Shown: piece after piece, positions 1 to 17,458 of the stretch
Layout: every line of letters begins with the position of its first letter
Position numbering within the stretch: position 1 is the stretch's first letter
NCBI RefSeq assembly: GCF_025354435.1
Contig: NZ_JANXMU010000012.1
Coordinates: 1 to 33,040, forward strand
Source: Rhodoferax sp.
GTDB taxonomy: Bacteria; Pseudomonadota; Gammaproteobacteria; Burkholderiales; Burkholderiaceae_C
Direction: 5' to 3'
Length of the DNA stretch: 33,040 nt
Notes under the pieces: model-generated
Database searches by the model: none
Seen by the model: only the letters and a program-made list of their open reading frames with translations
What the model was told of the DNA's origin: nothing
Program-made: the position numbers and the translations under genes

Positions 1-77
1 CTCTGACCTCCCTCGACCAGTCGCACTGCTTCTTGCTTGAATTCGAGCGTGTATCGCGCTCTCGCCGTCTTCGTCAT
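1..77 (-). CDS. IS3-family transposase OrfA, N-terminal fragment (partial)
   Basis: Only the first 25 codons lie in the window; the gene continues past base 1. The peptide begins MTKTARARYTLEFKQEAV and goes on RLVEGGQ. This is the usual start of the helix-turn-helix OrfA of IS3-family elements (pattern YT-EFK-EAV-LV--G), which binds the terminal repeats and is normally fused to the DDE integrase OrfB by frameshifting. The start ATG is at 77-75, preceded by a good AAGGAGA ribosome site. No more can be said about integrity or subgroup. Confidence 0.75.
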   Translation of the reverse strand, partial: MTKTARARYTLEFKQEAVRLVEGGQ

Positions 78-140
78 TTCCGTTCTCCTTGCGTGAATTT
101 AAACACTCAGCAAGGGATACGTTTTTCGAGGGCAAGGTCA
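1..140 (-). mobile_element. End of an IS3-family insertion sequence, truncated by the window edge
   Basis: Read on the minus strand, this stretch holds the start of a transposase orfA preceded by about 60 bases of leader. IS3-family elements end in 5'-TG...CA-3'; the plus-strand sequence reads ...GGCAAGGTCA at 131-140, so the terminus is probably at 140 (a CA at 143-144 is also possible). The other end is outside the window, so the target duplication cannot be checked. Confidence 0.6.
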
Positions 141-219
141 ATCAGCCATCTATTGACCCGCCCGCCACCACTACCTATCCAATACAAAATAAACAAAAAT
201 AACAGCCAATGGATCAATT

Positions 220-1260
220 ATGAATGCCCACTCCCTGGGTTCGGCGAAGGTTTCCAGGCTTTTACGTATGGGTTTGTTGCTGGCCATAGTCTGCCAATGG
301 CCCGCCTGGGCAGACACCCCACCCGACTGCGCAGCCCCTGCATCCACCGCGTGCTACTTTGCCTTCACGCTACCGGGCAGCGCCTTGGGGCGCATGCATT
401 TTTATGCCTCGCGGGTACCCGGTGCGGGCACGCCCACGGCGGCCCTGGTCGCCGTGCACGGCCATCCACGGGACGCCAACAAAACCTTCAATGCCGCACT
501 GAAAGCCGTGCAACACAGTGGCGCATTAGACCGCAGCTTGGTGGTAGCCCCGTTTTTCCAGGTCAGCGAGGCAGATGCAGCACCATGCCACACAGCGGGC
601 GTGCCGGGTGCACAAGACGGAGATCTGCTGTGGACCTGCGCCTCGTGGATGGCCGGTGGCCAGGCGCGTAATGCCGCCGGGCTGACCTCGTTTGCCGCCC
701 TGGACGCGCTGGTGGTGGAGCTGCACCAGCAGTGGCCCAGCCTGCAAACCGTCACCATTGCCGGGTTTTCGGCCGGGGCGCAAATGGTGCAGCACGCCAT
801 CGGCTTCGCTGCCGTGCCACCCGCCCCTATCACCCTGCGTTATGTGGTGGCCGACCCCGGCACCTGGCTGTACTTTGATCCGGTGTGGCCCGCCGCCACG
901 GTAGCTGCCTGCCCCGAGGTCCAGCGCTGGAAGTACGGCACCGAAGACTTGCCCACCGACCTGGGCCGCAGCGCCACTGAGGCCCGCACCCACTATGCGC
1001 AGGCCGACATCCACTACCTGGAAGGCGCGCTGGACAGCAGCGACGCGCCGGGCACGTTTTACAAGATTCTGGACAAGAGTTGCGCCGCCATGGCCCAGGG
1101 CCCGTACCGCATGCAACGCGGGCTGGCTTACACCGAATACGACCGCAAGCTGCTGGCCCCTGGCAAGCAGCGCCGCGTGACCACCGTGCCGGGCTGCGCA
1201 CACGATGTGGCCTGCGTTTTTGCAGCCCCTGAGGCCCGCTCTGCCCTGCTGGGTAACTAG
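220..1260 (+). CDS. Secreted alpha/beta-fold serine hydrolase
   Basis: A 346-residue exported hydrolase, probably an esterase acting in the periplasm or outside the cell. Residues 1-31 look like a Sec signal peptide: a basic N-region, the hydrophobic stretch MGLLLAIVCQWPAWA, then cleavage before Asp32. The nucleophile elbow is AGFSAG with Ser184. His328 (GCAHDVACVF) fits the catalytic histidine, and Asp272 in EGALDSSD is the best candidate acid. Ser, Asp and His come in the right order for the fold. Substrate is unknown. The ribosome site is weak (TGGAT), and an AT-rich leader of about 75 bp separates the gene from the IS end. It converges on the TVP38 gene, their stop codons sharing one CTAG. 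A shorter start at Met17 would spoil the signal peptide. Confidence 0.75.
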   Translation: MNAHSLGSAKVSRLLRMGLLLAIVCQWPAWADTPPDCAAPASTACYFAFTLPGSALGRMHFYASRVPGAGTPTAALVAVHGHPRDANKTFNAALKAVQHSGALDRSLVVAPFFQVSEADAAPCHTAGVPGAQDGDLLWTCASWMAGGQARNAAGLTSFAALDALVVELHQQWPSLQTVTIAGFSAGAQMVQHAIGFAAVPPAPITLRYVVADPGTWLYFDPVWPAATVAACPEVQRWKYGTEDLPTDLGRSATEARTHYAQADIHYLEGALDSSDAPGTFYKILDKSCAAMAQGPYRMQRGLAYTEYDRKLLAPGKQRRVTTVPGCAHDVACVFAAPEARSALLGN

Positions 1261-1919
1261 CGCAAGTACTTGCGCGCGGCCCAGCCCCCCAAGCCGGCCA
1301 GGGCCAGCAGACCCAGCACAATCGCCACCGCCAACGGGCCGGGCTGGCGGAAAGCAGCCACGATCTGCTCCACAAAAAACGCCATGATCACCGTGCCCGG
1401 GGCCATGCCCAGCGCCGTGCCCAGCACCATGTCGCGCAGGCGGATGTGCGAGGCACCGGCGACCATGTTGACGATGGCAAACGGGGCGATGGGCACCACC
1501 CGCACCGCGATCACCGCCAGCAGACCGCGCTCGGCCAGGCGACGGCTGACGGTATTGACCCGCTCGCCGCCCAGCTTTTGCAGCACCGGGTTGCCCAGCA
1601 GATGCCCCAGCCCGTAGCTGGCCATAGCCCCAAGCAAAGCCCCGCCAAAGGTGGTGGCCATGCCCAGCCAGGGGCCAAAGGCTACCAGCGCCACCAGGGT
1701 CAGAAAGCCCAGCGGCACCACCAGAATGCTGGCCAGCGCAAAGCCTAGTACCGCCGCCACCGGCCCGAACGAAGCCCCCAGTTGCTGCAACGCGCCGACG
1801 ATACGGTCGGCATCCAGCCACTGGCGCAGTGGCGAGGCGCTCCAGGCCACCGCCAAACCCACCAGCGCGGCCACCACCAGCATCAGTCCAAGGACCCGCC
1901 AACGCATGGAGGAGGTCAA
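1257..1919 (-). CDS. TVP38/TMEM64 (VTT/DedA-like) family inner-membrane protein
   Basis: A 220-residue integral membrane protein. It has an N-terminal membrane segment (about residues 7-27), two re-entrant/hydrophobic segments around 50-115 with VALVAFGPWLG and GGALLGAMASYGLG, then the family motif region R(R)LAERG...VRVVPIAPFAIVN..AGAS.I, and a C-terminal helix before WAARKYLR. The VTT/DedA superfamily is linked to lipid scrambling and membrane homeostasis. Two starts are possible. TTG at 1919 overlaps the NRPS stop (TTGA) and suggests translational coupling; ATG at 1907 lies 12 bases further in. Neither has a strong ribosome site. It is the last gene of the patatin-NRPS operon, which makes a lipid-related role there plausible but unproven. 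Confidence 0.85.
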   Translation of the reverse strand: MTSSMRWRVLGLMLVVAALVGLAVAWSASPLRQWLDADRIVGALQQLGASFGPVAAVLGFALASILVVPLGFLTLVALVAFGPWLGMATTFGGALLGAMASYGLGHLLGNPVLQKLGGERVNTVSRRLAERGLLAVIAVRVVPIAPFAIVNMVAGASHIRLRDMVLGTALGMAPGTVIMAFFVEQIVAAFRQPGPLAVAIVLGLLALAGLGGWAARKYLR

Positions 1920-4900
1920 GGTGCGGCCTTGTCCATGCGCTCGGCGATCACCGTGGCCAACTCGGTGACGTTGCCGGGCTCAAAGATCGAGCCGTGCAAC
2001 CCGCGGATCTGGTGTTCGTACAGATGCTTGGGCATCAGCCGCGACCAAGGCCGAAACAGCCAGCGGCTCCAGCTGGCCAGGCCGGATGACTTGAGCAGCA
2101 GCGTGGGCCCGTCGTAACCTGTGGGGCGGTAGCCTTTCAAAGCCATCACCTGGCTGACCAGGCCGGGGTCATTGAACATGGCACCCATGCGGCGGCCGTT
2201 CAGGCTCAGCTCCTGCATGCGAAACCGCTTCACCAGCCAACCCGACAACCGCCAAAACGCCGTGCCGCCCAGGCGCGATGCCGGGTAGGTGGTGTCAATC
2301 AAGAACAGCCCACGCACCGGGAAACCACGCTGCTGCAGCAGGCGAATGGCCTCCAGCGCCGCCACACCGCCCACCGAAAACCCGGCCAAAAAACCAGGCC
2401 GCTTGCCGTGCGCCTGGATGGCATTGGCGTACAGAGTGGCCAGGTCATCGATGCGCTCTATCGGCTGGGTAAACGGGGGTTGCAGCATGTGCACATCGCA
2501 GGCATTGCCGAGGGCGCGCGCCAGGTTCTGGAAGCGCAGCAGGTCGCCATGGCCCGACGCGGCCAGGTACAGCGGCACCCGACCGGTGTCGGCGCCCAGA
2601 TTGAGCATCACACTGGGGCCTTTGTTCTTGTCGGCCAGCGCTACGGCCAGGCTTTCGATGCTGGGGTGCTCAGTAATCAAGTACATCGGCACCTTGCGGC
2701 CCACCAGCTTCTCGATGCTGCTCAGCATGGTGACGGCGGCCAGCGAGTCGCCGCCCAGGTCGAAGAAATTGTCAAACACAGTGATGGGCCGGGTGTCCAG
2801 CACGTCTTCCCACAGCGCCAGCAGCTCGGCCTCGTAGCGGCGGTTGGCCTTACGGGCCTGGGTGGAGCTGGCGATAGCGCTGGGGTCGGGCAGTGCGTCA
2901 TAATCGGTTTTGCCCGCCACGCTGGCGGGCAGGCCCGGCAAGATGCTGATGCCGCTGGGCACCATGTAGTTGGGCAGGCGCATGCGCAGCACGGCCTGCA
3001 GGCTCTCCACCGAAGCTTTGCCGGTGGCAGCCACCCAGGCGTGGATTTGCGGCTTGCCTTTGCGCTCGATCAGCTTGGCAGCCGCCTGCAACACACCTTC
3101 AATCGCCGACAGCGCCGACTCGATTTCGCCCAGCTCGATGCGGTAGCCACGCAGCTTGACCTGCCGGTCCAGCCGCCCCAAAAAGTGCAGATTGCCATCG
3201 TTGCCCAGCCAGCCCCGGTCGCCGGTGCGGTACATGCGGTGGCCGGGCCAAAACGGGTCGGGCAGAAACACCTGGGCATCCAGCTCAGGGCGGTTCAGGT
3301 AGCCGCGCGCAATCGCCTCGCCGCCGATGTAGATCTCGCCTGGCACGCCCAGCGGCATGGGGCGCAGCGCGTGGTCCAGCACGTAGATACGGGTGTCGTC
3401 AATCGGGCGGCCAATCGGCAGGGCGTTGTCGGTGCGGTGGTTTTCGCACTCCCAGACGGTGGCAAAAATCGCGGTTTCGGTGGGGCCGTAGACGTTGTAC
3501 AGCCGCCCGCCGGTTTCCTTCAAAAAGCGCTGCGCCAGCTCGGGCGACAGCACCTCGCCGCCGCAGCAGGCTACGCGCAGCTTCAGGTCCTTGCGGTGCC
3601 CGGCCGAATCCAGAAACCGGCTCAGGGTGCTGGGCACAAAGGCCATGATGGTGACCCGGTGGCGCACCGCAAAGTCGGCCAGCGACTCGGGCAGCAATCG
3701 CCCTGGCGGCGGCAAAGCCACGCTGGCACCGTGCACCAGCGGCAGCAGCAGCTCGATCAGCGACGGGTCGAAGGTGACCTGGGTGGCCTGGGCCGAGCGG
3801 TCATGCCATTCCACCGCGTAAGCCCGCGACAGCCAGCCCAGCCGCCGTGCCAGTGTGCCGTGCTCGATCATCACGCCCTTGGGCCGCCCGGTAGAGCCCG
3901 AGGTAAACAGCACGTAGGCCAGGTCGTCCGCCGCGGGCTGCACGGTCAGCCGCTGCGAGCCGTGCTGGGCCACATCGGACAAGGCTTCCATCCAATCTAC
4001 ATGCAAGGTCCGGGCGTGCAGGCCGCCCAGCCGCTCCTGGGTATCTGGCTGGATCAGCACGGCGATAGCCCCGGCCTCTTGCAAAATCGCGTCCAGCCGG
4101 GCCAACGGAGCTTCGGGGTCGAGAGGCAAAAACGCCGCCCCGGCCTTGGCGATGGCCAGCATGGCGACTACCCAGTCGGGCGAGCGGTCCATCACCACGG
4201 CGATGATCTTGTCCTTGCCCGCACCCAGCGCCAGCAAGCGCCAGGCCAGGTGGGTAGACACTGCGTTCAGCGTGGCGTAGTCCATGGCCCCCACGCCCTG
4301 GCCCTCGTTCCACACCAAGGCATTGGATTCGGGGCGCAGCCCGGCGTGGTGCTCAAACTGCACCACAAAAGGCTGGACCACCGCCATGGCGGCCACGTCT
4401 TTGTGCAGGCCGTCGATCAGCATCCAGTGTTCTTCCGGCGGCACCAGCGCAATGCTGTCCAGCAAGGTCTCCGGCGGGCCCATGGTGGCCTCGACCAGGT
4501 GCCACACGCGGCGGCCCAGCAGCTCCACCTCGCCTTCGGCAAAGCAGGCGGCGCTGGCTTCCAGTGCCAGCTCCACGTCCTCGTCAGCATGGAACTCGCA
4601 CACCGTCACGCCCAGCGGAAACCGGGCCCGGCCCGAGAACAACTGGCGCGACTCGACCAGCTCGGCGGTGCCAAACGACACCGCGTAGTCTTGCCGCTCG
4701 AACGACAGCAGCACGTCGAACAGGCCGTCGCGGCGGTTGCGCGCCACCTCCAGCGTGCGACCCAGCTCGCTCAAGGGGTAGCGTGGATGCCGCAGCGCGG
4801 CCCGCATGGCGCTGCCTACGGCGGCCAGCAGCCCGCCCAGGGTCATGTCGGGGGCCAGCTGCACCGCCACCGGTATCACGCCCACAAACATGCCCAGCGT

Positions 4901-5773
4901 GTCGGTAAAGCGCCGCCCGCCCCGGTTCAGGCTGGGCACGCCGACCACCACTTCCTGGCGGTTGCTGACGCGGCCAAAGTACAGAATCAGGGCCGCCAAA
5001 AAGAAGTTGAAGGCGCTGGAACCGCGTTCTGCCGCCACCTGGCGCAGCCGGTCGTAACCGGCCCGAGGAATGCGCTGTACCCCCATGTGGGCAGCGGGTA
5101 GCTCGTGCTGGCGGGTGCTGGCGTAGCGGCGCTCGATCAGGGCCGGGGGCAGTACCGGCATTTGCCCGCGCCAGTAGGCCGCATCGCGCTCGAACGCGGG
5201 CGACTGGTGGTACAGGGTGGACTCTTCGATAAATTTCTTGTAGCCCGGGTCGCTGCGCAGCGCCGGGGCCAGGCCCGTCTCCAGCGCGTTGTACAGCTCG
5301 CTCCAGCGCCGCATCACCTGCGAGGTGCCCCAGCCGTCCATCACCAGGTGGTGGAACTGGATGGTCAGCCCATGCAGCACATCGCTGGCACGCAGCAGGG
5401 CAAAGCGCCAGGGGGGCGTGCCATCCAGCACAAAAGGCACGGTCATGCGCTGCTGCCACCAGATGCGCATGGACTCCTTGGGGTCGGCCTGGGCCGACAG
5501 GTCCACCACTTCCAGGTTCAGGGCGCTGTGCGAGAGCAGGGTCTGGCTGCCGTCCGCCAGGGGGGCCAGGCGCAGGGCATCGCTCTCGGCCACCAGCTGG
5601 GCCAGGGCTTCCTGGAAGCGCGGCAGGTCCAGTAGGCCCACCAAAAACGCCCCGCCGCCGATGTTCAGGTGCGCACTACCGGCCCAGGTGCGTTGGTCCA
5701 GCCAGACTTCGCGCTGGCTCAGCGACAGGGTCAGGTCTTCATGGCGACGCTCTACCGGCGTTACAGCTTCCAT
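1916..5773 (-). CDS. Single-module non-ribosomal peptide synthetase (C-A-PCP-TE)
   Basis: A 1285-residue NRPS with one complete module. Condensation domain, about 12-435: active site HHLVMDG at 141-147. Adenylation domain, about 465-965: A3 loop YVLFTSGSTGRPKG at 620-633, A5 NVYGPTETA at 760-768, A7/A8 YRTGD and the RLDRQVKLRGYRIELGEIE hinge near 848-885, and catalytic Lys955 in GKTD. Carrier domain: FFDLGGDS with phosphopantetheine Ser1010. Thioesterase, about 1065-1280: GFSVGG with Ser1133, Asp1160 and His1260. All catalytic residues are present, so it should load one amino acid, acylate or condense it, and release it. No MbtH protein, phosphopantetheinyl transferase or second module lies nearby. 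It overlaps the patatin gene by 13 bp and the TVP38 gene by up to 4 bp. The product is unknown; an N-acyl amino acid or small lipopeptide is my inference. Confidence 0.93.
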   Translation of the reverse strand: MEAVTPVERRHEDLTLSLSQREVWLDQRTWAGSAHLNIGGGAFLVGLLDLPRFQEALAQLVAESDALRLAPLADGSQTLLSHSALNLEVVDLSAQADPKESMRIWWQQRMTVPFVLDGTPPWRFALLRASDVLHGLTIQFHHLVMDGWGTSQVMRRWSELYNALETGLAPALRSDPGYKKFIEESTLYHQSPAFERDAAYWRGQMPVLPPALIERRYASTRQHELPAAHMGVQRIPRAGYDRLRQVAAERGSSAFNFFLAALILYFGRVSNRQEVVVGVPSLNRGGRRFTDTLGMFVGVIPVAVQLAPDMTLGGLLAAVGSAMRAALRHPRYPLSELGRTLEVARNRRDGLFDVLLSFERQDYAVSFGTAELVESRQLFSGRARFPLGVTVCEFHADEDVELALEASAACFAEGEVELLGRRVWHLVEATMGPPETLLDSIALVPPEEHWMLIDGLHKDVAAMAVVQPFVVQFEHHAGLRPESNALVWNEGQGVGAMDYATLNAVSTHLAWRLLALGAGKDKIIAVVMDRSPDWVVAMLAIAKAGAAFLPLDPEAPLARLDAILQEAGAIAVLIQPDTQERLGGLHARTLHVDWMEALSDVAQHGSQRLTVQPAADDLAYVLFTSGSTGRPKGVMIEHGTLARRLGWLSRAYAVEWHDRSAQATQVTFDPSLIELLLPLVHGASVALPPPGRLLPESLADFAVRHRVTIMAFVPSTLSRFLDSAGHRKDLKLRVACCGGEVLSPELAQRFLKETGGRLYNVYGPTETAIFATVWECENHRTDNALPIGRPIDDTRIYVLDHALRPMPLGVPGEIYIGGEAIARGYLNRPELDAQVFLPDPFWPGHRMYRTGDRGWLGNDGNLHFLGRLDRQVKLRGYRIELGEIESALSAIEGVLQAAAKLIERKGKPQIHAWVAATGKASVESLQAVLRMRLPNYMVPSGISILPGLPASVAGKTDYDALPDPSAIASSTQARKANRRYEAELLALWEDVLDTRPITVFDNFFDLGGDSLAAVTMLSSIEKLVGRKVPMYLITEHPSIESLAVALADKNKGPSVMLNLGADTGRVPLYLAASGHGDLLRFQNLARALGNACDVHMLQPPFTQPIERIDDLATLYANAIQAHGKRPGFLAGFSVGGVAALEAIRLLQQRGFPVRGLFLIDTTYPASRLGGTAFWRLSGWLVKRFRMQELSLNGRRMGAMFNDPGLVSQVMALKGYRPTGYDGPTLLLKSSGLASWSRWLFRPWSRLMPKHLYEHQIRGLHGSIFEPGNVTELATVIAERMDKAAP

Positions 5774-7563
5774 TGCGCTATGGTCTCCATCGCATGGCGG
5801 TAGCCCACTTCGATGATCTCGTCGGCGCGGCTATAGGCCATGAGCGAAAAACCGGCCACCGGCGGCTCCAGGTACTGGTCGGCCTGGGCAATGGTGGCCG
5901 CGCGCTGGTGCAGGCCGCCGATGTGACCGGCGCGGTACAAAATTTCGGTGATGCCCGGCGTGCTGCGGGGTTTGCGCGACACCATGCCCTTCAGGGTGCT
6001 GCGCACCGACAGGCGCTCCAGCGCCGGGTCCACGCCCATTTCGACCTGCACGTCCACGTCGATGGCCACAATGGTGCCGTTGCCGCGGCGCTTCTCCAGC
6101 GGCGCGCCGAGGCGCATGCGCATCGCGTCCACCGGCACGTTTTCCAGAATCGCGCCATCCACCAGCAGATTGCCGTCCACCAGCACCGGCGGGAACAGGC
6201 CCGCAGGCGAATTACTGGCCAGCACGGCGCGCCACAGCGGTCCGGTTTCCTGCACCATGGTGCCGCCCTTGGTGAGGTTGCAGGCCGCGGCAAAGTACGG
6301 GGTCCACAGGGCATCCATCTGGATATCGCCAAACATGGCGCGCAGGTCGCGCTTGACGCGCCCGCCCGAGACGATGGACACCACGGGCAGGGTCGGCCAC
6401 TCGCCGCCTTCGGCAAACTTGCGGGTCTGGTCGCGTATCTGGTTCAGCGGCAGGCCGCAGGCAAACTGCGCCCCAATCAGCGCGCCCATGCTGTTGCCGC
6501 CCACCAGGTCCACCGGAATATTCGCCTCTTGCATGGCCCGCAGCAGGCCCAGGTGGGCAAAACCGCGCGCACCACCGCCGCCCAACACCACGCCCACGGC
6601 GCGCCCGGTCAGGTAGCGCGCCAGCCGGGCGTAGTCGCCCGTATGCTGGGCGCGCGTGGGGTAGACGCGTTCGATCTGCCGCCCGGCACGCCAGACGCTG
6701 GTCACATCGGGGGCCACCGCCGCGGCCGGGTACAGCACCACCAGATGCTGGCGCTTCATGCCAAAGCCGGGCTCTCCGGTGAGCCGCTGCTCCAGCGCGC
6801 CCTGGGACCGAGAGGCCCCGGCATTGGCCACAAAAATCACCTGATCGGCCTGGCGGAAAGCCCGCCGCGTCCAGGACGAAGGCGTGGCATCGGCCTCGTA
6901 GACCAAAAAGTCGTAGGCATCTTCCAGCGCGTCGAAGCGGTCGCTGCCGCCCCCGGCTTCCGAGGTTTGCGAGCCGCGCTCCAGCTCGGCCGAGGGCGTG
7001 ATGTGGTGCACCCGGCCCACGCGCCCAAAGGCTTCGGCCAGGCCGCGCGCCACCTCGGCAGAGCCCGCCCCTTCGTGCAGCGGCACCACCACGAAGGCCT
7101 GGGCCTGGTGCCGGTCCACCACTTGGGTGGTGTGGCGCAGGTGGTCAAAAATAGCTTGGGAAAACACCCGGTTCAGGGCCAGCGGCTGGCGCACCAGCAA
7201 GGCCTCGAAGTGGCTACGGTCCAGCACCGCCAGGGTGGAGTCGCGTACGGCGGTCACGTCGGCGGTGCGCGGCTGACGCAGGATCAAGCCCATTTCTCCG
7301 ACGCTCTCGCCGGGGCGGATTTCGTTGTACAGCATGACGCTGCCGTCGCGGTTGCGGCGCGATGCCCGCAGGCGGCCGGTGATGACGAAGAACATGCTGT
7401 CGGCTGCTGCGCCTTCTTCCAGCACCACGCTGCCGCCGTGCACTTCCTGCAGCACCAGCACGTCGGCCAGATCGTTCAATACTGCTTCGTCCAACGTGCC
7501 AAACACGCGGCTGTCACGCAGCACCTGGATGACCCGCGCATGGAATTTTTCCTTACCTGGCAT
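5761..7563 (-). CDS. Cyclic-nucleotide-binding patatin-like phospholipase (NTE family)
   Basis: A 600-residue protein with a regulatory and a catalytic half. Residues 15-135 form a cNMP-binding domain whose phosphate-binding cassette is intact: GESVGEMGL at 85-93 followed by PRTADVTA with Arg99. A linker of about 170 residues follows. Residues 322-530 are a patatin domain: oxyanion loop GGGGARG at 328-334, nucleophile GGNSMG with Ser358, and the dyad Asp469 in LLVDGA. This architecture is that of bacterial neuropathy-target-esterase homologues, which hydrolyse phospholipids or lysophospholipids; nucleotide control of the lipase is expected from the family but not shown here. No membrane segment or signal peptide is evident. 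It is the first gene of the operon, and its end overlaps the NRPS start. Confidence 0.9.
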   Translation of the reverse strand: MPGKEKFHARVIQVLRDSRVFGTLDEAVLNDLADVLVLQEVHGGSVVLEEGAAADSMFFVITGRLRASRRNRDGSVMLYNEIRPGESVGEMGLILRQPRTADVTAVRDSTLAVLDRSHFEALLVRQPLALNRVFSQAIFDHLRHTTQVVDRHQAQAFVVVPLHEGAGSAEVARGLAEAFGRVGRVHHITPSAELERGSQTSEAGGGSDRFDALEDAYDFLVYEADATPSSWTRRAFRQADQVIFVANAGASRSQGALEQRLTGEPGFGMKRQHLVVLYPAAAVAPDVTSVWRAGRQIERVYPTRAQHTGDYARLARYLTGRAVGVVLGGGGARGFAHLGLLRAMQEANIPVDLVGGNSMGALIGAQFACGLPLNQIRDQTRKFAEGGEWPTLPVVSIVSGGRVKRDLRAMFGDIQMDALWTPYFAAACNLTKGGTMVQETGPLWRAVLASNSPAGLFPPVLVDGNLLVDGAILENVPVDAMRMRLGAPLEKRRGNGTIVAIDVDVQVEMGVDPALERLSVRSTLKGMVSRKPRSTPGITEILYRAGHIGGLHQRAATIAQADQYLEPPVAGFSLMAYSRADEIIEVGYRHAMETIAQWKL

Positions 7564-7750: not shown

Positions 7751-8431
7751 TCAGGCGGTGGCAAACTGCCCCAAGTTGAGGCGCAAAGTGCGTCCGCAGC
7801 GGGCCGCCAAAGTCTCGTCGTGGGTCACCAGTACAAAGGCCGTACCCTGGTCGCGCGCCAGTTGCAGCATCAGCGCAAAAACGCCGTCGGCTGTGCTACG
7901 GTCCAGGTTGCCGGTGGGCTCGTCGGCCAGCACGCAGGCGGGCTGGGCCACCAGGGCACGGGCGATGGCGACGCGCTGGCGCTCACCGCCCGAGAGCTCG
8001 GCGGGGCGGTGGTGCACACGGTACTGCAAACCCACCAGTGCCAGTATTTTCATAGCTTCTTCTGCAGCCTGGTCGCGCGGTAGCCGCCGAATCCACAGGG
8101 GCATGGCAACGTTGTCGAGCGCACTGAATTCAGGCAGCAGGTGGTGGAACTGGTAGACAAAGCCCAGGTGCTGGTTGCGCTGGCGGCCCTGCTCGGCCGC
8201 ATCCCACTGGGCCATGTCGTGGCCGTGGAGTTGCACCGTGCCGCTGCTGGGGGCATCTAGCCCGCCCAGCAGGTGCAGCAGCGTGCTTTTGCCCGAACCG
8301 GACGCGCCAACGATGGCCACGGTTTCGCCCGCAAACACCTGCAGGTCCACGCCCTTGAGCACGGTTACGTCCAGGCGGCCTTCGGTAAAACGCTTGGTTA
8401 AGCCAGTGGCTTGAAGTACGGGCTTATTCAT
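7751..8431 (-). CDS. lolD: Lipoprotein-releasing system ATP-binding protein LolD
   Basis: A 226-residue ABC ATPase that powers release of lipoproteins from the inner membrane to the carrier LolA. Visible motifs: Walker [10 protein letters not shown] at 42-50, the Q-loop in [14 protein letters not shown], signature [10 protein letters not shown], Walker [10 protein letters not shown] and the H-loop [17 protein letters not shown] is typical of LolD. I start at ATG 8431 ([10 protein letters not shown]); an upstream in-frame ATG at 8494 would put 21 unrelated residues in front and lies well inside the permease gene. It overlaps the lolC stop by 8 bp (ATGAATAA), so the two are translationally coupled. 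Confidence 0.93.
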
Positions 8432-9680
8432 AACGCAATGCTTCAGCAGGATTGACACGGCTGGCGTGCCAGCTGGGGTAAATGGTGGCCACAAAGGCCA
8501 GAATCAGCGAGATCACCGCAATCGGCACGATGTCGGCCTGCTGCGGCTCACTCGGCATGCGGCTGATGAAATACACCTCGCGCGGCAAAAAGCTGGCGTG
8601 GAACAGCTGCTCCAGCGCGGGCACGATCACGTCGATGTTGAAGGCAATGCCCAGGCCCAGCAGCAGCCCGGCCAGCGTGCCCATCACACCGACCATCGCG
8701 CCCTGCACCATGAAGATGCCCATGATGCTGCGCGGGCTGGCTCCCAGGGTGCGCAGGATGGCGATGTCGGCGCGCTTGTCGGTGACCGTCATCACCAGGG
8801 TGCTGACCAGGTTGAACGCGGCCACGGCCACGATCAGCGTGAGGATGATGAACATCATGCGTTTTTCCAGCTCCACCGCGGCGAACCAGGTTTTGTTTTG
8901 CTGCGTCCAGTCGCGGATCAGCAGGTTGCCGCTGAGGCTGTTGGCCAGTTGCTGGGCCACCTGGCGCGCCTGGTGCAGGTCTTGCAGCTTGACGCGGATG
9001 CCGGTGGGGCCCTCCAGCCGGAAGATGCGCTCGGCATCTTCCATGTGCATCATCAGCAGGGCCGAGTCGTATTCATAGTGGCCGGACTCGAAGGTGCCCA
9101 CCACCGTCATCTGCTTCAGGCGCGGCACCACGCCGGCCGGGGTGACCTGCCCGCTGGGGGCGATCAGCGTGACCGGGTCGCCCACGCGCACGCCCAGGCT
9201 GCGCGCCAAGTCGATGCCCAGCACCACGCCAAACTGGCCGGGCACCAGCTTGGCCAGGGTTTCCTTGGGCATGGCCACGGCAAGGTCGGTAACCTCGCCC
9301 TCGTGCGCCGGGTCGATGCCGCGCACTATCGTGCCTTTCATGTCCTCGCCGCGCGCCAGCAATGCCTGGCTCGCGATGAAAGGTGCAGCACCCACCACCG
9401 CCGGGTTCTGCTTGACCTCGGCCAGAGTCTTGGCCACGTCGGGCAGCGCCTCGCCGTTGGGGGCGAAGATTTCAATGTGCGCCACCACCGACAGCATGCG
9501 GTCGCGCACCTCTTTCTGGAAGCCGTTCATCACGCTGAGCACAATGATCAGCGCCGCAACGCCCAAGGCGATCCCGAGCATGGACACGCCCGAGATGAAG
9601 TTAATAAAACCGTTGCGCCGGGTGGCCCGGCCCGCCCGCGTATAGCGCCAGCCGACCAAAAGTTCGTAAGGGATTTGCAT
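8424..9680 (-). CDS. lolC: Lipoprotein-releasing system permease, LolC/LolE family
   Basis: A 418-residue inner-membrane permease of the LolC/E (FtsX-like) family, partner of the LolD encoded next. It opens with the family N-terminus [13 protein letters not shown], followed by a first membrane segment (about residues 27-50, [20 protein letters not shown]) and the conserved [14 protein letters not shown] large periplasmic domain follows, then three C-terminal membrane helices. The start at 9680 ([10 protein letters not shown]) matches the family; 16 extra codons upstream to 9728 are possible but unlike it. No ribosome site is visible before either start. Only one permease gene is present, so LolC and LolE cannot be distinguished here; a homodimeric LolF-like arrangement is possible. 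Confidence 0.88.
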
Positions 9681-9750
9681 GGAGCAGGTGAGAGAGGAGA
9701 CGGGGTGATTGTGGCAGCTTGGACGCAAACGCCTGCTCCAAAGCCCAAAG

Positions 9751-10499: not shown

Positions 10500-11381
10500 A
10501 TGTCACCTTACCTCGAACTGGTAGGCATACAGCAGCAGGAGTCGTTCAAGGTTTGGACGCACGGCTACCCGTATGAAACGGTGCGCTGGCATTTCCACCC
10601 CGAATACGAGCTGAACTACATCAGCCACACCTCGGGCCGGTTTTATGTGGGCGACCATACTGGTACCTTCGAGCCCGGCCAGCTGGTGATGATGGGCCCG
10701 AACCTGCCGCACAACTGGATCAGCGAAGTGCCCACCGGGGAATCGGTGCCCGAGCGCTGCGTGGTGCTGCAGTTTTCCGGCAAGAGCATTCTGGGCGGCA
10801 TCGAGGCTTTTCCCGAACTAAGCCAGTTGGAGCGGCTGCTGGCCGACTCGCAGCGCGGCATATTGTTCTCGCCCGAAGTCACCACCAAGGCCGTGCCTCT
10901 GCTCACCAACCTGCTGGCGGCGCGCGGCTTCCAGCGCGTCTACCAGTTCCTGGCGCTGCTGGAAACCTTGGCCCATGCACAGGACAACACCTTGCTGGCC
11001 ACACCCACCTTCCGGCCTGACCCGCAGGGCTACCAGTCGTCCACCATCAACCAGGTGCTGACCTATCTGGCCGAGCACCTGAACGAGCGGCTCAATGAAT
11101 CCGGTATGGCGCGCTACGCCGGTATGGAACCCAGCGCCTTCTCGCGCTTCTTCCGCCGCCACACCGGGCTGCCGTTTGTGCAATACCTGAACCGGCTGCG
11201 GGTGAACCGGGCCTGCGAGCTGCTGATCTCGTCCGAGCAGTCGGTCACCGACATCTGCTACGCCTGCGGCTTCAACAACGTCTCCAATTTCAACCGCCAG
11301 TTTCTGGCGCAAAAGTCCGTGCCCCCTTCGCAGTTCAGGCGCTACTACCTGCTGAACGATGAATGCGAGGCCACCGGCTAG
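10500..11381 (+). CDS. AraC-family transcriptional regulator of the polyol operon
   Basis: A 293-residue regulator. The N-terminal half is a cupin-like sensor domain, with WHFHPEYELNYI (about 24-35) and later GDHTGTFEPGQLVMMGPNLPHNW, a sugar-binding jelly-roll pattern. The C-terminal 95 residues hold two helix-turn-helix motifs: ESGMARYAGMEPSAFSRFF and the AraC signature SVTDICYACGFNNVSNFNRQF. The start has a good AAGGAGA ribosome site. It lies 111 bp upstream of, and in the same direction as, the polyol dehydrogenase operon, so it probably activates that operon in response to its substrate. No operator repeats could be assigned with confidence. Confidence 0.88.
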   Translation: MSPYLELVGIQQQESFKVWTHGYPYETVRWHFHPEYELNYISHTSGRFYVGDHTGTFEPGQLVMMGPNLPHNWISEVPTGESVPERCVVLQFSGKSILGGIEAFPELSQLERLLADSQRGILFSPEVTTKAVPLLTNLLAARGFQRVYQFLALLETLAHAQDNTLLATPTFRPDPQGYQSSTINQVLTYLAEHLNERLNESGMARYAGMEPSAFSRFFRRHTGLPFVQYLNRLRVNRACELLISSEQSVTDICYACGFNNVSNFNRQFLAQKSVPPSQFRRYYLLNDECEATG

Positions 11382-11492
11382 CCGCCTGGCCTGCATACCC
11401 CGCCCTTTTTTCCACTTTTCCACGCCTTGCAGCGGGAGCTTTTCAGCCCCCGTGTGGCAGCGCTTGGCCTTTTTTTAACCTATGGACATCGT

Positions 11493-12590
11493 ATGAGCAC
11501 AACACCTGCCCCTGACATGCAAGCCGTGGTCTGCCACGGCCCGAAAGACTACCGCCTGGAACGCGTGGGCAAACCCGTGGCCGGCCCGAACGAACTGGTC
11601 ATCGAGATCGTCGCCTGCGGCATCTGCGCCAGCGACTGCAAATGCCATTCCGGCGCGGCCATGTTCTGGGGCGGCGACGGCAAGCCGGCCTGGGTCAAGG
11701 CGCCGGTGATCGCGGGCCACGAATTCTTCGGCTACGTGGTCGAGGCCGGTCCGGGTGCGCTGGAACACTTCGACGTGACGATCGGCCAGCGCGTCATCGC
11801 CGAGCAGATCGTGCCCTGCGGCAAGTGCCGCTACTGCACCAGCGGCAGCTACCACATGTGCGAAGTGCATAACATCTTCGGCTTCCAGCGCGTGGTGGCC
11901 GATGGCGGCATGGCCGACTACATGCGCCTGCCGCCGACGGCGCGGGTGCACAAAATCCCCGAAAGCATTTCGCTCAACGACGCCGCCATGATCGAGCCCA
12001 TGGCCTGCGCGGTGCACACCGTGAACCGCGCCGACATCCAGCTCGACGACGTGGTGGTGATCGCCGGTGCCGGCCCGCTGGGCCTGGGCATGGTGCAGAT
12101 CGCCAAACTAAAAACGCCGAAGAAGTTGGTCGTCATCGACATGGTGCCGGCCCGGCTGGCGCTGGCCAAGGCCTTCGGTGCCGACGTGACCATCAACCCC
12201 GCCACCGACGACGGCCGGGCCATCATCGACAGCCTGACCCAGGGCTACGGCTGCGATGTCTACATCGAAACCACCGGCGTGCCGGCCGGCGTGACCCAAG
12301 GCCTGGAGCTGATCCGCAAGCTCGGCCGCTTTGTCGAATTCAGCGTATTCGGCAAGGAGACCAGCGCCGACTGGTCCATCATCGGCGACCGCAAGGAGCT
12401 GGACGTGCGCGGCTCCCATCTCGGCCCGCACTGCTACCCGGTGGTGATCGACCTGATGGAGCGTGGCCTGCTGACCTCGCGTGGCATCGTCACCCACGAC
12501 TTCACGCTCGACGAATGGGAAGAAGCCTTCAAGCTGGCCAATTCGCTGGACTCGATCAAGGTCTTGCTCAAACCCGGACGTGCTGCATGA
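11493..12590 (+). CDS. Zinc-dependent polyol (alcohol) dehydrogenase
   Basis: A 365-residue medium-chain dehydrogenase. Catalytic zinc ligands: Cys42 in ACGICASD, His76-Glu77 in AGHEF, and probably Glu168. Structural zinc cysteines: Cys109, 112, 115 and 123. Rossmann loop GAGPLG at 192-197, with Asp216 after the second strand, which favours NAD over NADP. It should oxidise a secondary alcohol of a polyol to a ketose. The overall pattern, including the segment FWGGDGKPAW before GHE, reminds me of the erythritol/L-threitol dehydrogenase group as well as sorbitol/xylitol dehydrogenases, so the substrate is open. I start at 11493 (MSTTPAPDM); an earlier in-frame ATG at 11427 would add 22 poorly conserved-looking residues. 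Its stop overlaps the kinase start (ATGA). Confidence 0.88.
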   Translation: MSTTPAPDMQAVVCHGPKDYRLERVGKPVAGPNELVIEIVACGICASDCKCHSGAAMFWGGDGKPAWVKAPVIAGHEFFGYVVEAGPGALEHFDVTIGQRVIAEQIVPCGKCRYCTSGSYHMCEVHNIFGFQRVVADGGMADYMRLPPTARVHKIPESISLNDAAMIEPMACAVHTVNRADIQLDDVVVIAGAGPLGLGMVQIAKLKTPKKLVVIDMVPARLALAKAFGADVTINPATDDGRAIIDSLTQGYGCDVYIETTGVPAGVTQGLELIRKLGRFVEFSVFGKETSADWSIIGDRKELDVRGSHLGPHCYPVVIDLMERGLLTSRGIVTHDFTLDEWEEAFKLANSLDSIKVLLKPGRAA

Positions 12591-14182
12591 ACCAGCACCC
12601 CGCCGCCTGCGTGATCGGGGTCGACATCGGCACCCAAAGCACCAAGGCTGTGTTGGTGCGGGCCGACGGCCAGATCCTGGCCCAACACGCCAAAAGCTAC
12701 CAGGTGGAAACGCCAAAACCGCTGTGGGCGCAGCAGTGGCCAGATGTCTGGCTGGACGCAGTCGTTGCATGCATAAAAGGGGTTCTAGCCCAGGTAGATT
12801 CTGCGCAAGCTGCTATCAAAAGCATATGTGTCAGCAGCCTGTATGGCGGCAGCGGCATACCGGTGGACGCGCAGGGCGAAGCGCTGTACCCCTGCCTGAT
12901 CTGGATGGACCGCCGCGCCCAGGACGAGGTGCGCTGGGTCCGCGAGAACGTCGACCTGGAGCGCCTGTATGACATCACCGGCAACGGCGTAGACAGCTAC
13001 TACGGCTACACCAAGATGCTCTGGCTGCGCGAGAAAGAGCCCGCCATCTGGGCCCGCACCCAGCAGTTCCTGCCACCCAACAGCTATGTCAACGCCCGCC
13101 TGACCGGTGAAGTCGCGGTAGACCACAGCTCGGCCGGGAATATCGGCGGGATCTACGACGTGGCACAGCGCGGCTGGTCGGCCGAGGCGCTGCAGATGTT
13201 GGGCATTCCGCTGCACATGGTGTCGGCGCGCCTGGTCGAGTCCAGCGGCGTGGTCGGCCCGCTGCTACCGGCCTGGGCCGAGCGCCTGGGCTTGCCCGCA
13301 GGCATTCCGGTGGTGGCCGGTGGTGTCGATGCCGCCGTGGCCACGCTGGCCGCCGGTGCTACCCAGCCCGGCAACCACGTGGCAATGGTAGGCACCAGCA
13401 TGTGCTGGGGCACGATCCGGCCAAGCGTCGATGCGCGGCACGGCCTGATCAGCATGCCGCACGTGTTCAATGGCGATAACAACGGTACAAAGGATCTGTA
13501 CGTGTTCGGCGGCGCCATCGCCGCCGGAGCCTCCGTCACCTGGTTCCGCGAGACCTTTTGCCAGGCCGAAATCGCCACAGCCAAAACCCTGGGCGTCGAC
13601 CCACACAGCCTGCTGGAAAAAGACGCGGCACCTTTGCCACCGGGCAGCGGCGGCCTGCTGTTCCTGCCCTATTTGATGGGCGAGCGCAGCCCCGTGTGGG
13701 ACGCGCAGGCCAGCGGCGCTTTCGTCGGCCTGGGTCTGCACCACGGCCGCGCCCACCTGTACCGCGCGGTGCTGGAGGGCGTGACATTTGCGCTGCGCCA
13801 CAACATCGAAGCCGGCGTGCGCGGGCTTACCCAGCTGGACCACCGACTGGTGGTGGTCGGCGGTGCCAGCCATTCCGACCTGTGGATGCAGATCATTGCC
13901 GACGTCACCAACCGCCCGGTGTTCACGCTGGCTGACGATGTGGAAGCCTCGCTGGGCGCGGCCCTGCTGGCAGCCTTCGGCGCGGGTCTGATCGACGCCG
14001 ACGCGGTGCGCCGTGGCTGGGTGACACCGGTGCTGCGCACCGAGCCCAACGCCGAAGCCCACGCCGCCTACAACGACTTGTTTGCCCAGTACGTAGACCT
14101 CTATCCCGCGCTCAAGCCTGCGATGCACCGCCTGCGCGCAACCACCACACCGCCCCGTTCACCAGGAGACCCGCCAGCATGA
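12587..14182 (+). CDS. FGGY-family carbohydrate kinase (xylulokinase-like)
   Basis: A 531-residue sugar kinase of the actin-like ATPase fold. The phosphate-1 loop is GVDIGTQSTKAV near the N-terminus, and the second-domain motifs include GTSMCWGTI, GGLLFLPYLMGERSPVWD, the FGGY signature region YRAVLEGVTFALRHNIEAG and VVGGASHSDLWMQIIAD. It should phosphorylate the ketose or polyol of this pathway. The xylulokinase SGQMH substrate motif is replaced by SSLYGGSG, so I do not call it xylB. The start at 12587 overlaps the dehydrogenase stop (ATGA); an in-frame ATG at 12515 would lie inside that gene. A copy of the dispersed repeat is embedded in frame at about residues 63-80. Confidence 0.88.
   Translation: MNQHPAACVIGVDIGTQSTKAVLVRADGQILAQHAKSYQVETPKPLWAQQWPDVWLDAVVACIKGVLAQVDSAQAAIKSICVSSLYGGSGIPVDAQGEALYPCLIWMDRRAQDEVRWVRENVDLERLYDITGNGVDSYYGYTKMLWLREKEPAIWARTQQFLPPNSYVNARLTGEVAVDHSSAGNIGGIYDVAQRGWSAEALQMLGIPLHMVSARLVESSGVVGPLLPAWAERLGLPAGIPVVAGGVDAAVATLAAGATQPGNHVAMVGTSMCWGTIRPSVDARHGLISMPHVFNGDNNGTKDLYVFGGAIAAGASVTWFRETFCQAEIATAKTLGVDPHSLLEKDAAPLPPGSGGLLFLPYLMGERSPVWDAQASGAFVGLGLHHGRAHLYRAVLEGVTFALRHNIEAGVRGLTQLDHRLVVVGGASHSDLWMQIIADVTNRPVFTLADDVEASLGAALLAAFGAGLIDADAVRRGWVTPVLRTEPNAEAHAAYNDLFAQYVDLYPALKPAMHRLRATTTPPRSPGDPPA
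12774..12826 (-). repeat. Dispersed repeat, copy 3, embedded in frame in the kinase gene
   Basis: The plus strand contains GGGTTCTAGCCCAGGTAG and then ATTCTGCGCAAGCTGCTATC. Its reverse complement gives GATAGCAGCTTGCGCAGAAT followed by CTAC-CTGGGCTAGAACCCC, resembling the family (ATAGCTGCTTGCGC...). It encodes KGVLAQVDSAQAAIKSIC, and its base composition is visibly more AT-rich than the flanking codons. Confidence 0.5.
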
Positions 14183-14235
14183 AAAAAAGCACCTTTCTTT
14201 TCCCTCACCAAAGCAACCACAAGGAGACAGACAAC

Positions 14236-15594
14236 ATGAAGAAATTTGTACTAGGGGCCATCGGCGCCGCCATGATCGCGCTGACCATGCCCGCCACCCC
14301 GGCGCTGGCACAGACCGCCGCACCTTGGGCCATCGACAAGGCTGCCGCCCCCTTGAAAGGCACCAAGATCAAGGTGCTATTCCTGGACCGGCCCGGCTAC
14401 CGCGCCATCATCAAGCTGCTGCCCGAGTTCGAGAAAAAGACCGGCCTGAAGGTGGAGTACGAAATTGTGCCTTACGAAAACGCCCGTGAAAAGCAGGTGC
14501 TGAACTTCAGCGCCAAAGGCGACCTGACCATGGCCCTGGTGGACCTGGTGTGGATTGGCGAGTTTGCCGAAAGCGGCTGGATCGTGCCGGTGGATACCTT
14601 CACCAAGGATGCCGCCATCACCGACCCGAACCTGGATCTGAAGGGCTTCTTCCCGCTGCTGCTGAATGCGTTTGGCTCCTGGGACGGCAAGGTCTATGGC
14701 CTGCCGTTTGACAACTATTCCGGCCTGATGTTCTACAACCAGTGCATGCTCAAAGACGCTGGCTTCAGCGGCCCGCCGCAAACCTGGGACGAGCTGAAAA
14801 ACGTCTACGCCCCCAAGCTGACCAATCCGGCGAAAAAACAGTACGCCTATGCGTTGCAGTCGCTGCGCGGCGAAACGCAATCGGCCGACAGCTTCATGCG
14901 TTTCCTCTGGCCCTTCGGCGGCAGCCTGCTGGACAAGGACTTCAAGTCCAACCTGGCCTCCAAGGGCAGCCAGGACGGCCTGAAGTTCCGCCAGGATTTG
15001 ATGAAGTACATGCCCCCTGGCGTGGTGAGCTACGACCATGCCGAAGCGGTGAACGCGCTGGCCCAGGGCCAGGTGGCGATGCTGACCGAATGGTCGGCCT
15101 TCTACGGCACGCTGACCGACCCCAAGACCTCCAAACTCGGCGACTGCCTGGCCGTGGCACCCGAGCCCAAAGGCCCCGCCGGCCGCCTGCCCGCACTCGG
15201 CGGCTTCTCGCTGGCCGTGGCCTCGCAGGCCACACCCGCGCAGCAAAAGGCTTCGTGGATCTTCACCCAGTGGGCCACTTCGGATGCCATCGCCAAGCAG
15301 TATGTGGAAGCCGGTGGCGTGTCCGGGCGCATGGCGGTCTACAAAGACCCTGCCATCCAGGCCAAGTTCAAGTACGTGAAACCGATGGTCGAGTCGTGGC
15401 AGCAAGGTGTGCCGGAATTCCGCCCCCGCTTCCCAGCCTGGTCGTCGATTACCGAAACCGTGGCCGAGTTCGGCAGCAAGATCATGCTGGGTGAAACCAG
15501 CATCGAGCAGGGCACCAAGGAGATCAGCACCCGCATGGAATCGGTGCTGGACAAAGAAGGCTATTACAACGGCAAGAAAAAGAAACTGCAATAA
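14236..15594 (+). CDS. ABC transporter periplasmic sugar/polyol-binding protein
   Basis: A 452-residue family-1 solute-binding protein. It begins with a Sec signal peptide (MKKFVLGAIGAAMIALTMP, cleavage after ALA near residue 26) and continues with the fold pattern IKVLFLDRPGYRAIIKLLPEFEKKTGLKVEYE, the hinge segment VYGLPFDNYSGLMFYNQ and a C-terminal WSSITETVAEFGSKIMLG. I start at 14236 because of the strong AAGGAGA site 10 bases upstream and the clean signal peptide. An in-frame ATG at 14179, overlapping the kinase stop and also preceded by AGGAG, would add 19 polar residues before the signal peptide. The ligand cannot be read from sequence; the neighbours suggest a polyol or rare ketose. 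Confidence 0.9.
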   Translation: MKKFVLGAIGAAMIALTMPATPALAQTAAPWAIDKAAAPLKGTKIKVLFLDRPGYRAIIKLLPEFEKKTGLKVEYEIVPYENAREKQVLNFSAKGDLTMALVDLVWIGEFAESGWIVPVDTFTKDAAITDPNLDLKGFFPLLLNAFGSWDGKVYGLPFDNYSGLMFYNQCMLKDAGFSGPPQTWDELKNVYAPKLTNPAKKQYAYALQSLRGETQSADSFMRFLWPFGGSLLDKDFKSNLASKGSQDGLKFRQDLMKYMPPGVVSYDHAEAVNALAQGQVAMLTEWSAFYGTLTDPKTSKLGDCLAVAPEPKGPAGRLPALGGFSLAVASQATPAQQKASWIFTQWATSDAIAKQYVEAGGVSGRMAVYKDPAIQAKFKYVKPMVESWQQGVPEFRPRFPAWSSITETVAEFGSKIMLGETSIEQGTKEISTRMESVLDKEGYYNGKKKKLQ

Positions 15595-15599
15595 ACAAC

Positions 15600-15634
15600 C
15601 CGGAGTTGCCTGCTTGCACAGCAGGCAACTCCGG
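15600..15634 (+). promoter_or_regulatory. Perfect 15-bp hairpin between binding-protein and permease genes
   Basis: CCGGAGTTGCCTGCT (15600-15614), loop TGCAC, AGCAGGCAACTCCGG (15620-15634), six bases after the binding-protein stop. There is no U-run after it, so it is probably not a full terminator. Such hairpins often stabilise the upstream mRNA and lower downstream expression, giving more binding protein than permease; that role is inferred. Confidence 0.75.
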
Positions 15635-15672
15635 CGTTGGAATAGCCCCTTTCCCGTTGCCTTGGATATTGC

Positions 15673-17429: not shown

Positions 17430-17458
17430 CACCAACAACAGCAACGGGAGACTAGCGC

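What the first reader, a model, noticed from the sequence alone, without database searches (positions are those of the whole stretch)
1257..7563. Overlapping operon of cNMP-patatin lipase, one-module NRPS and TVP38 membrane protein
Three genes overlap end to start (13 bp, then 3-4 bp), implying co-translation and a joint function. The lipase has an intact nucleotide-binding cassette and Ser358/Asp469 dyad; the NRPS has intact C, A, PCP and TE active sites; the third protein belongs to a superfamily linked to lipid scrambling. Together they could release fatty acid or lysolipid under nucleotide control, attach it to one amino acid and handle the lipid product in the membrane. I do not know this combination as a described system.
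Basis: partly seen in the sequence, partly recalled or inferred. Interest (0 to 1): 0.72.

Follow-up and report, generated by a model that had tools for sequence, protein, structure and literature searches.

The report
Conserved lipase, lipoinitiating NRPS, membrane-protein cassette
Three co-translated bacterial genes, a lipase, a one-module peptide synthetase that looks built to join a fatty acid to one amino acid, and a lipid-handling membrane protein, travel together across many Burkholderiales and probably make an amino-acid-containing lipid that nobody has yet identified.

Summary
On the minus strand an NTE-type patatin (5761-7563), a C-A-PCP-TE NRPS (1916-5773) and a VTT/TVP38 protein (1257-1919) overlap end to start. 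The order is kept at all 27 orthologous loci examined (23 complete, 4 cut by contig ends), in ten genera of two families plus two MAGs. The genes evolve together under purifying selection. The combination is already in print: a 2023 PLoS One paper drew it in five Burkholderiales and saw antifungal activity of three strains, without mutant or product.

New here: the C domain's closest solved relative is a fatty-acyl starter domain, and its gate residue is small, implying more than acetyl. The adenylation code is almost invariant and unassigned. FeeM-type N-acyl amino acid synthases occur in 22 of 23 cassette genomes of one family sample and lie beside the cassette in two lineages. Best reading: the NRPS makes an N-acyl amino acid lipid, the lipase supplies or remodels lipid, and VTT moves it across the membrane. 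The last two roles are inferred.

The parts
5761..7563 (-). Patatin-like lipase of NTE type, 600 aa: cyclic-nucleotide-binding domain (39-124), NTE P-loop-like domain (207-291), patatin domain (325-480); catalytic dyad Ser358/Asp469
1916..5773 (-). Single-module NRPS, 1285 aa: starter-type condensation (13-452), adenylation (473-826 and C-terminal part to about 960), PCP (983-1043, Ser of GGDS), thioesterase (about 1056-1285)
1257..1919 (-). VTT (TVP38/DedA superfamily) membrane protein, 220 aa, TTG start (or ATG 12 bases further in)
5761..5773 (-). 13-base overlap of the patatin stop and the NRPS start
1916..1919 (-). 4-base overlap of the NRPS stop and the VTT start (if TTG 1919 is the start)
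220..1260 (+). Convergent ORF of 346 aa between VTT and the contig end, no Pfam or NCBIfam family; a match also in G162 (L040/L044) but at none of the other loci searched; probably not part of the cassette
1..219 (.). Contig edge. By synteny the next gene in this genome is a FeeM N-acyl amino acid synthase, lying on contig C40 (L089 7807-9183, minus strand): C40's end and the window's start map next to each other in the closed relative G243 (L043)

Best explanation
The cassette makes and places an amino-acid-containing lipid. SHOWN by sequence: a complete one-module NRPS whose C domain is nearest to a fatty-acyl starter domain, coupled by overlapping genes to an NTE-type patatin and a VTT membrane protein, conserved as a unit. 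INFERRED: the A domain loads one (probably hydrophobic) alpha-amino acid on the PCP; the C domain acylates it with a medium or long fatty acyl group taken from acyl-CoA or acyl-ACP; the TE releases the N-acyl amino acid by hydrolysis or by transfer to a hydroxyl or amino group of a second (lipid) molecule. The patatin, perhaps switched by a cyclic nucleotide, releases fatty acid and lysolipid from membrane lipids, either to supply the acyl pool or the acceptor, or to trim the product. The VTT protein moves the amphiphilic product between membrane leaflets.
For: C domain: best PDB match is the RzmA starter C domain, by single sequence (2e-36, 129 bits against 97 for the next, ObiF1) and by a profile from 14 of the 26 cassette NRPSs (189 bits, against 157 PvdL, 151 CDA Cs, 148 ObiF1, 143 Txo2, 110 EntF, 83 surfactin SrfA-C). 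RzmA's gate residue R148 sets acyl length (Arg C2; Met in CdaPS1 C6; Ala in HolA C8); the aligned residue here is Thr in 25 of 26 and Ala in one. RzmA Q36, whose change to Gly on top of R148G favours C10-C12, is Gly here in 25 of 25 with data. A-domain code DPIACGVIFK in 25 of 26, keeping the Asp and Lys that (recalled) bind the amino-acid backbone. FeeM N-acyl amino acid synthase (PF21926, E up to 1e-10): in 22 of 23 cassette-bearing and 58 of 276 cassette-free genomes of one family sample (Fisher 4e-13; by genus 9 of 9 against 34 of 132, 1e-5). It lies on the same strand after VTT in the window's clade (17 bases after it in L039, 315 in L043; a convergent ORF between in L044 and, by synteny, the window) and 15 bases before the patatin in L063, another genus. 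Conservation, co-evolution and purifying selection.
Against: No product, substrate or phenotype is known. In the single-sequence search CDA Cs and PvdL ranked below C domains not known to me as starters (8xjz, TycC, Txo2). The A-domain code matches none that I recall. 17 of 25 genomes show only one PPTase at E 1e-5, so it is unclear what primes the PCP. Half of the FeeM stretches fetched (10 of 20) lie in EPS/exosortase-type clusters, some in cassette-free genomes, and exosortase genes follow the same pattern (22 of 23 cassette-bearing; 21 of 23 FeeM-bearing cassette-free; 16 of 34 others; hand-picked controls), so the FeeM link may reflect shared lifestyle. G039, of the window's genus, has the cassette without a strong FeeM match (best 5.5e-6). 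FeeM needs no NRPS. The own genome holds another NRPS-like ORF (C67, A domain 36% identical, 1350 aa) that I did not characterise. Lipase and VTT roles rest on family membership only.
Confidence: 0.5

Rival explanations
1. It is a small antifungal lipopeptide cluster, as the 2023 authors proposed: the NRPS makes a secreted lipo-amino acid that inhibits fungi, and the patatin and the VTT protein act against eukaryotes or in self-protection.
For: Three cassette-bearing strains inhibited Botrytis by 43-47%, against 11.6% for a strain without C domains (PMC10681181). N-acyl amino acids can be bioactive (recalled).
Against: No mutant; one negative control; only one of the three strains acted on Verticillium and none on Colletotrichum, and that one has other clusters. 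The 'SNARE-associated' label is the old name of PF09335 (recalled), now VTT. Besides an ABC-ATPase cluster that mixes paralogues, no further gene (so no exporter, regulator or immunity gene) lies beside the cassette in more than two of the ten genera.
Confidence: 0.17
2. The NRPS is a side-chain unit like FrsA: its TE transfers the N-acyl amino acid to another metabolite or to a lipid or polysaccharide made elsewhere in the genome.
For: FrsA is a stand-alone Cs-A-T-TE whose TE performs intermolecular transesterification (PMC7794379). The cassette sits beside EPS-type genes (ManC, FeeM) in L063 and co-occurs with exosortase genes.
Against: No conserved partner synthetase beside it. FrsA needs an MbtH partner, which only 3 of 25 cassette genomes carry.
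Confidence: 0.15
3. The TE cyclises the acyl-aminoacyl thioester to a tetramate-like alkaloid, as the minimal NRPS for pyreudiones does (recalled mechanism).
For: Same stand-alone layout as recalled for the pyreudione NRPS; a 'minimalistic' NRPS for these alkaloids is in print (only a reference line seen).
Against: Needs a beta-keto donor, for which no dedicated gene is conserved beside it; the predicted TE (pLDDT 68) matches many kinds of thioesterase at TM about 0.6 and rmsd 7-11, which does not separate the options.
Confidence: 0.1
4. Lipase and VTT are passengers: co-transcribed, with no part in the NRPS pathway.
For: Both families occur widely on their own (recalled).
Against: 27 of 27 loci in ten genera and two MAGs keep them, mostly with overlapping genes, while other neighbours change between genera.
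Confidence: 0.04

Closest known systems
NRPS / SNARE-associated / patatin gene cassette of Rhodoferax bin 43, R. koreense, Pseudoduganella ginsengisoli, Noviherbaspirillum denitrificans and Rhodocyclaceae bin 137 (PMC10681181)
   Same: By description the same three families in the same kind of hosts; NRPSs there 51-58% identical to that of Rhodoferax bin 43.
   Different: The text I saw calls it syringomycin-related, labels only C, A and T domains, and gives no starter-domain gate, A-code, FeeM or co-evolution analysis; in N. denitrificans the NRPS domains lie in separate genes. I could not compare sequences (supplements not open to me).
RzmA starter condensation domain (rhizomide synthetase; PDB 7C1H and others; PMC7804268)
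   Same: Best PDB match of the C domain by single sequence and by profile; same HHxxxDG motif and gate position.
   Different: RzmA's Cs opens a multi-residue lipopeptide line and takes acetyl (Arg gate); here the gate is Thr and the line is one module.
FrsA of FR900359 biosynthesis (PMC7794379)
   Same: Stand-alone starter C-A-T-TE module making an N-acyl amino acid.
   Different: FrsA needs an MbtH partner and a hydroxylase and decorates a cyclic depsipeptide; no MbtH in 22 of 25 cassette genomes.
FeeM / exosortase-associated N-acyl amino acid synthases (PF21926)
   Same: Predicted product class (N-acyl amino acid); genomic neighbour in two lineages.
   Different: GNAT-type enzyme, no NRPS domains.
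Bacterial NTE-type patatins and PlpD (PDB 5FQU)
   Same: Patatin dyad; cNMP and NTE P-loop domains as in NTE-type enzymes.
   Different: PlpD matches only the patatin part.

Membership tests
NRPS module with starter (lipoinitiating) C domain | Intact HHxxxDG, PCP serine and TE triad | tested here: met
   HHxxxDG and PCP Ser 24 of 24; TE Ser and His 23 of 23, Asp 22 of 23
NRPS module with starter (lipoinitiating) C domain | C domain sequence closest to starter type | tested here: met
   RzmA-Cs first in both; the profile then gives PvdL, CDA Cs and ObiF1, the single sequence ObiF1, 8xjz and others; PDB chains only, no full C-subtype tree
NRPS module with starter (lipoinitiating) C domain | First module of its line, no upstream NRPS donor | tested here: inconclusive
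   no other NRPS conserved beside it, but an uncharacterised NRPS-like ORF lies on contig C67 of the same genome
NRPS module with starter (lipoinitiating) C domain | Accepts a fatty acyl donor in vitro | not testable with these tools
   only gate-residue inference
NTE-type patatin | cNMP domain + NTE P-loop domain + patatin with GxSxG and DG dyad | tested here: met
NTE-type patatin | Binds and responds to a cyclic nucleotide | tested here: inconclusive
   Glu kept in 21 of 22, Arg in 22 of 22; cyclases in 25 of 25 genomes; binding not measurable here
VTT / TVP38 family | Pfam VTT domain above gathering score and conserved PxxPFxxxN-type motif (recalled) | tested here: met
   81.2 against 33.9 bits; R..P.APFA.vN conserved in 25 sequences
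VTT / TVP38 family | Lipid scrambling activity | not testable with these tools
   none
FrsA-like side-chain synthetase | MbtH partner | tested here: not met
   MbtH in 3 of 25 cassette genomes, none in the window's own
FrsA-like side-chain synthetase | TE performs intermolecular transfer | not testable with these tools
   TE model pLDDT 68; matches many TE kinds
2023 Rhodoferax NRPS/SNARE/patatin cassette | NRPS with patatin and SNARE-associated (VTT) genes beside it | tested here: met
   gene content as in the paper's text; sequences not compared
Syringomycin-type NRPS (label of the 2023 paper) | C domain close to syringomycin synthetase | not tested
   the paper itself gives 31-33% similarity only; no syringomycin sequence was fetched

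The most novel reading that the evidence does not exclude
A self-contained, cyclic-nucleotide-gated lipid-remodelling pathway: the patatin turns membrane phospholipid into lysolipid and fatty acid, the one-module NRPS builds an N-acyl amino acid and its TE transfers it to the lysolipid or releases it as a membrane aminolipid, and the VTT protein distributes it across the bilayer. It would run in parallel with FeeM-made N-acyl amino acids in exosortase/EPS-forming bacteria. That would be NRPS-made structural lipid rather than a secreted metabolite, and a bacterial VTT protein with a defined cargo.
Probability: 0.27. Interest if true: 0.78.

Novelty: new variant of a known kind. Interest (0 to 1): 0.55.

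Why it matters
NRPSs are usually read as makers of secreted peptides. A three-gene unit that ties a starter-C single-module NRPS to a lipase and a protein of the lipid-scramblase superfamily, in genomes that also encode N-acyl amino acid synthases, points to an NRPS route to a membrane or matrix aminolipid. It also gives a minimal system in which the cargo of a bacterial VTT protein could be found, and offers a testable lipid prediction in place of the 'syringomycin-related plus SNARE' reading in print.

Tried and rejected
The upstream ABC pair (7751-8494, 8424-9728) as part of the system: it is LolD and LolC/E by NCBIfam and this pair lies beside the cassette only in the window's genus and the close MAG L039, so I treat it as neighbouring housekeeping genes.

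Plasmid carriage: 71 of 72,556 plasmid records matched the NRPS at E 1e-120, all below 60% identity; the 15 listed are 30-32%, so no orthologue was seen there. RNA elements: none in the window at gathering thresholds. Wider spread: besides the own genome, no orthologue at E 1e-160 among 369 genomes of the class (only G923, 34%, without partners in 20 kb); its NRPS follows a GntR/aminotransferase gene.

Structure of the C domain: the model was useless (pLDDT 37) and was dropped. The TE model was moderate (pLDDT 68) and only confirmed an alpha/beta-hydrolase TE fold. A-domain substrate: the code fits none that I recall; resemblance of its last residues to Val/Ile codes is recollection and is not used.

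Papers: searches looked for the combination; PMC10681181 was the only one found to describe it (Collimonas paper PMC4690342, passage read, does not).
Full report
Observation. The window is a whole contig (C28, 33,040 bases) of a 4.66 Mb draft genome. The nearest named relative found with the genes is Rhodoferax sp. OV413 (NRPS 80% identical). On the minus strand lie patatin (5761-7563), NRPS (1916-5773) and VTT (1257-1919), with overlaps of 13 and 4 bases.

Conservation. An NRPS search of 299 genomes of the family (E up to 1e-100) gave a clear gap: 23 genomes including our own with the orthologue (about 45-100% identity), the fragmented copy of G110 included, then other NRPSs, mostly 30-38%. 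I took about 20 kb around 20 of these and shorter stretches of two with short contigs. Patatin and VTT lie beside the NRPS in the same order and strand in every one, as far as the contigs reach; the same holds for L039 and L041 from named MAGs. The order-level search (399 genomes, E up to 1e-160) added two genomes of a second family with the full cassette (G319 and G408, 56%) and one multi-module NRPS that is no orthologue (G541). The class-level search (369 genomes) added none; G923 (34%, full length) has no patatin or VTT match in 20 kb. In all 23 loci are complete and 4 are cut by contig ends; there is no exception among the 27. The stricter E-value in the two wider searches could have missed fragments. 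Clustering of neighbouring ORFs shows that, besides an ABC-ATPase cluster that mixes paralogues (five groups), no further gene is shared by more than two of the ten genera, leaving aside the MAG L039 of unstated genus; a few, such as a TatD-type gene, are shared between the window's genus and g69 (ORFs picked mechanically). Pairwise distances of the three proteins correlate at 0.94, 0.91 and 0.89 in 21 loci, with 0 of 2000 permutations as high; shared species history alone would also give such correlations. dN/dS between the window and its 95% identical relative is 0.11, 0.08 and 0.16, and against G162 0.34, 0.23 and 0.30. The cassette NRPSs separate from four outgroup NRPSs with full local support.

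The NRPS. The C domain's best PDB match is the RzmA starter domain, both with the single sequence and with a profile from 14 cassette C domains. In the profile search PvdL, CDA Cs and ObiF1 follow, then Txo2 close behind; EntF and surfactin SrfA-C rank lower. In the single-sequence search ObiF1 is second, but CDA Cs and PvdL fall below 8xjz, TycC and Txo2; I did not build a C-subtype tree. In RzmA, R148 gates acyl length: shorter side chains allow longer acyl groups, and changes at Q36 and Y138 lengthen it further (PMC7804268, sections 7 and 8 read). By the alignment (chain numbering is paper + 3, my deduction from the R148A variant), R148 corresponds to Thr150, Q36 to Gly40, Y138 to Phe140 and M143 to Met145. 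Across 26 cassette NRPSs Thr150 is kept in 25 (Ala in L051), Gly40 in 25 of 25 with data, Phe140 in 23 and Met145 in 25. This predicts an acyl group longer than acetyl; it does not fix its length. The ten-residue adenylation code (positions recalled from the GrsA scheme) is DPIACGVIFK in 25 of 26 and DPVACGVIFK in one. The same columns in three outgroups give codes that I recall as Thr, Gly and Ser, which checks the mapping; the cassette code itself I cannot assign. No MbtH gene in 22 of 25 cassette genomes. PPTase matches in 25 of 25, but only one each in 17; in the own genome the second one lies on C67 near another NRPS-like ORF.

The partners. Patatin Ser358/Asp469 are invariant in 22 of 22, and the oxyanion loop nearly so; the cyclic-nucleotide Glu is kept in 21 and the Arg in 22. 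Class III cyclases occur in 25 of 25 cassette genomes. The VTT protein passes Pfam's cut-off and keeps the family motif. The lipase and transport roles are inference from families.

The FeeM link. A gene found near the cassette at four loci (L039, L043, L044, L063) is an N-acyl amino acid synthase (PF21926 in the two copies scanned) of about 440-470 aa. In the window's genome it lies just beyond the contig break: the end of contig C40 and the start of the window map side by side in the closed relative G243. In L039 it follows VTT by 17 bases, in L043 by 315; in L044, and by synteny in the window, a convergent ORF lies between; in L045 (G039), same genus, it is missing. In L063, another genus, it ends 15 bases before the patatin, beside a ManC gene. 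G205 of that genus, with no NRPS match at E 1e-100, has the ManC-FeeM locus alone. FeeM (E up to 1e-10, my threshold) is present in 22 of 23 cassette genomes and 58 of 276 others, and in 9 of 9 cassette genera against 34 of 132 (counts made by hand from the two lists). In the second family both cassette genomes have FeeM and the third genome tested from that genus, cassette-free, has none. Against a direct link: 10 of the 20 FeeM stretches fetched show a common cluster of sugar transferase, histidine kinase, sigma-54 regulator, TPR protein and FeeM, in cassette-free genomes too, and exosortase follows the same pattern: 22 of 23 cassette genomes, 21 of 23 FeeM-bearing cassette-free, 16 of 34 FeeM-free (hand-picked controls). 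So the statistical link may be one of lifestyle; the two adjacencies are the stronger hint.

Literature. PMC10681181 (passages and section 14 read; supplements not read) describes an NRPS with a 'SNARE-associated' and a patatin gene in two metagenome bins and three strains. The three strains inhibited Botrytis by 43-47% (control 11.6%); one of them also acted on Verticillium and none on Colletotrichum; there was no mutant and no product. PF09335 was formerly named SNARE-associated (recalled), so this is by description the same cassette. Five literature searches found no other description. FrsA (PMC7794379, passages) is the best-documented single starter C-A-T-TE module that I found; the pyreudione NRPS is known to me by recall and one reference line; OaaC (PMC13142362, abstract only) shows a stand-alone starter-like C domain making fatty acid amides.

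Verdict. A real, conserved, selected three-gene unit, already sighted in print but unexplained. The most likely product is an N-acyl amino acid or a lipid carrying one. Confidence is about one half for the whole mechanism, higher for the starter-type NRPS step and lower for the roles of lipase and VTT.

Noticed in passing
window 1-219 and contig C40 end (L089 7807-9183): By synteny a FeeM N-acyl amino acid synthase is the next gene beyond the contig break, 87% identical to the copy beside the cassette in G243.
   Followed up: yes
L063 3035-7701 (minus strand): In genus g110 the order is ManC-FeeM-patatin-NRPS, with FeeM 15 bases before the patatin; G205 of the same genus has ManC-FeeM without the cassette (L106).
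   Followed up: partly
L104 8893-10230: A long FeeM protein also matches PilZ above its cut-off (28.2 against 22.5 bits; the L097 copy is below it at 18.1; none reported for L039 and L043 copies at E 0.001), hinting at c-di-GMP control of some FeeM enzymes.
   Followed up: partly
window 7751-9728 (minus strand): LolD and LolC/E lipoprotein-release genes directly upstream of the patatin, only in the window's genus and its close MAG relative.
   Followed up: partly
window 10500-19296: Sugar or polyol uptake and use cluster: AraC regulator, zinc dehydrogenase, xylulokinase-like FGGY kinase, ABC sugar transporter genes, SDR.
   Followed up: no
window 23821-29476: Gluconolactonase, dihydroxy-acid/phosphogluconate dehydratase family and 2-keto-3-deoxygalactonokinase genes: looks like a sugar-acid degradation cluster.
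   Followed up: no
L053 5081-6070, L054 4990-5967, L055 13705-14895: In genus g29 a second, divergently oriented gene with a weak patatin match (29-30%) lies directly upstream of the cassette.
   Followed up: no
L075 7033-12299: G923, in the same class, has a distant C-A-PCP-TE NRPS (34%, code DAVTLSLLGK) overlapping by one base a GntR-aminotransferase (MocR-like) gene; no patatin or VTT match in 20 kb.
   Followed up: partly
window 220-1260 (plus strand): Convergent 346-aa ORF with no Pfam family and a GFSAG motif like a serine hydrolase; a match also in G162, at none of the other loci searched.
   Followed up: no
G000 contig C67 (L066 5248-9300, minus strand; PPTase match at C67 12715-12924): A second NRPS-like ORF of 1350 aa with a PPTase match about 0.3 kb beyond its stop in the own genome, not characterised.
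   Followed up: no
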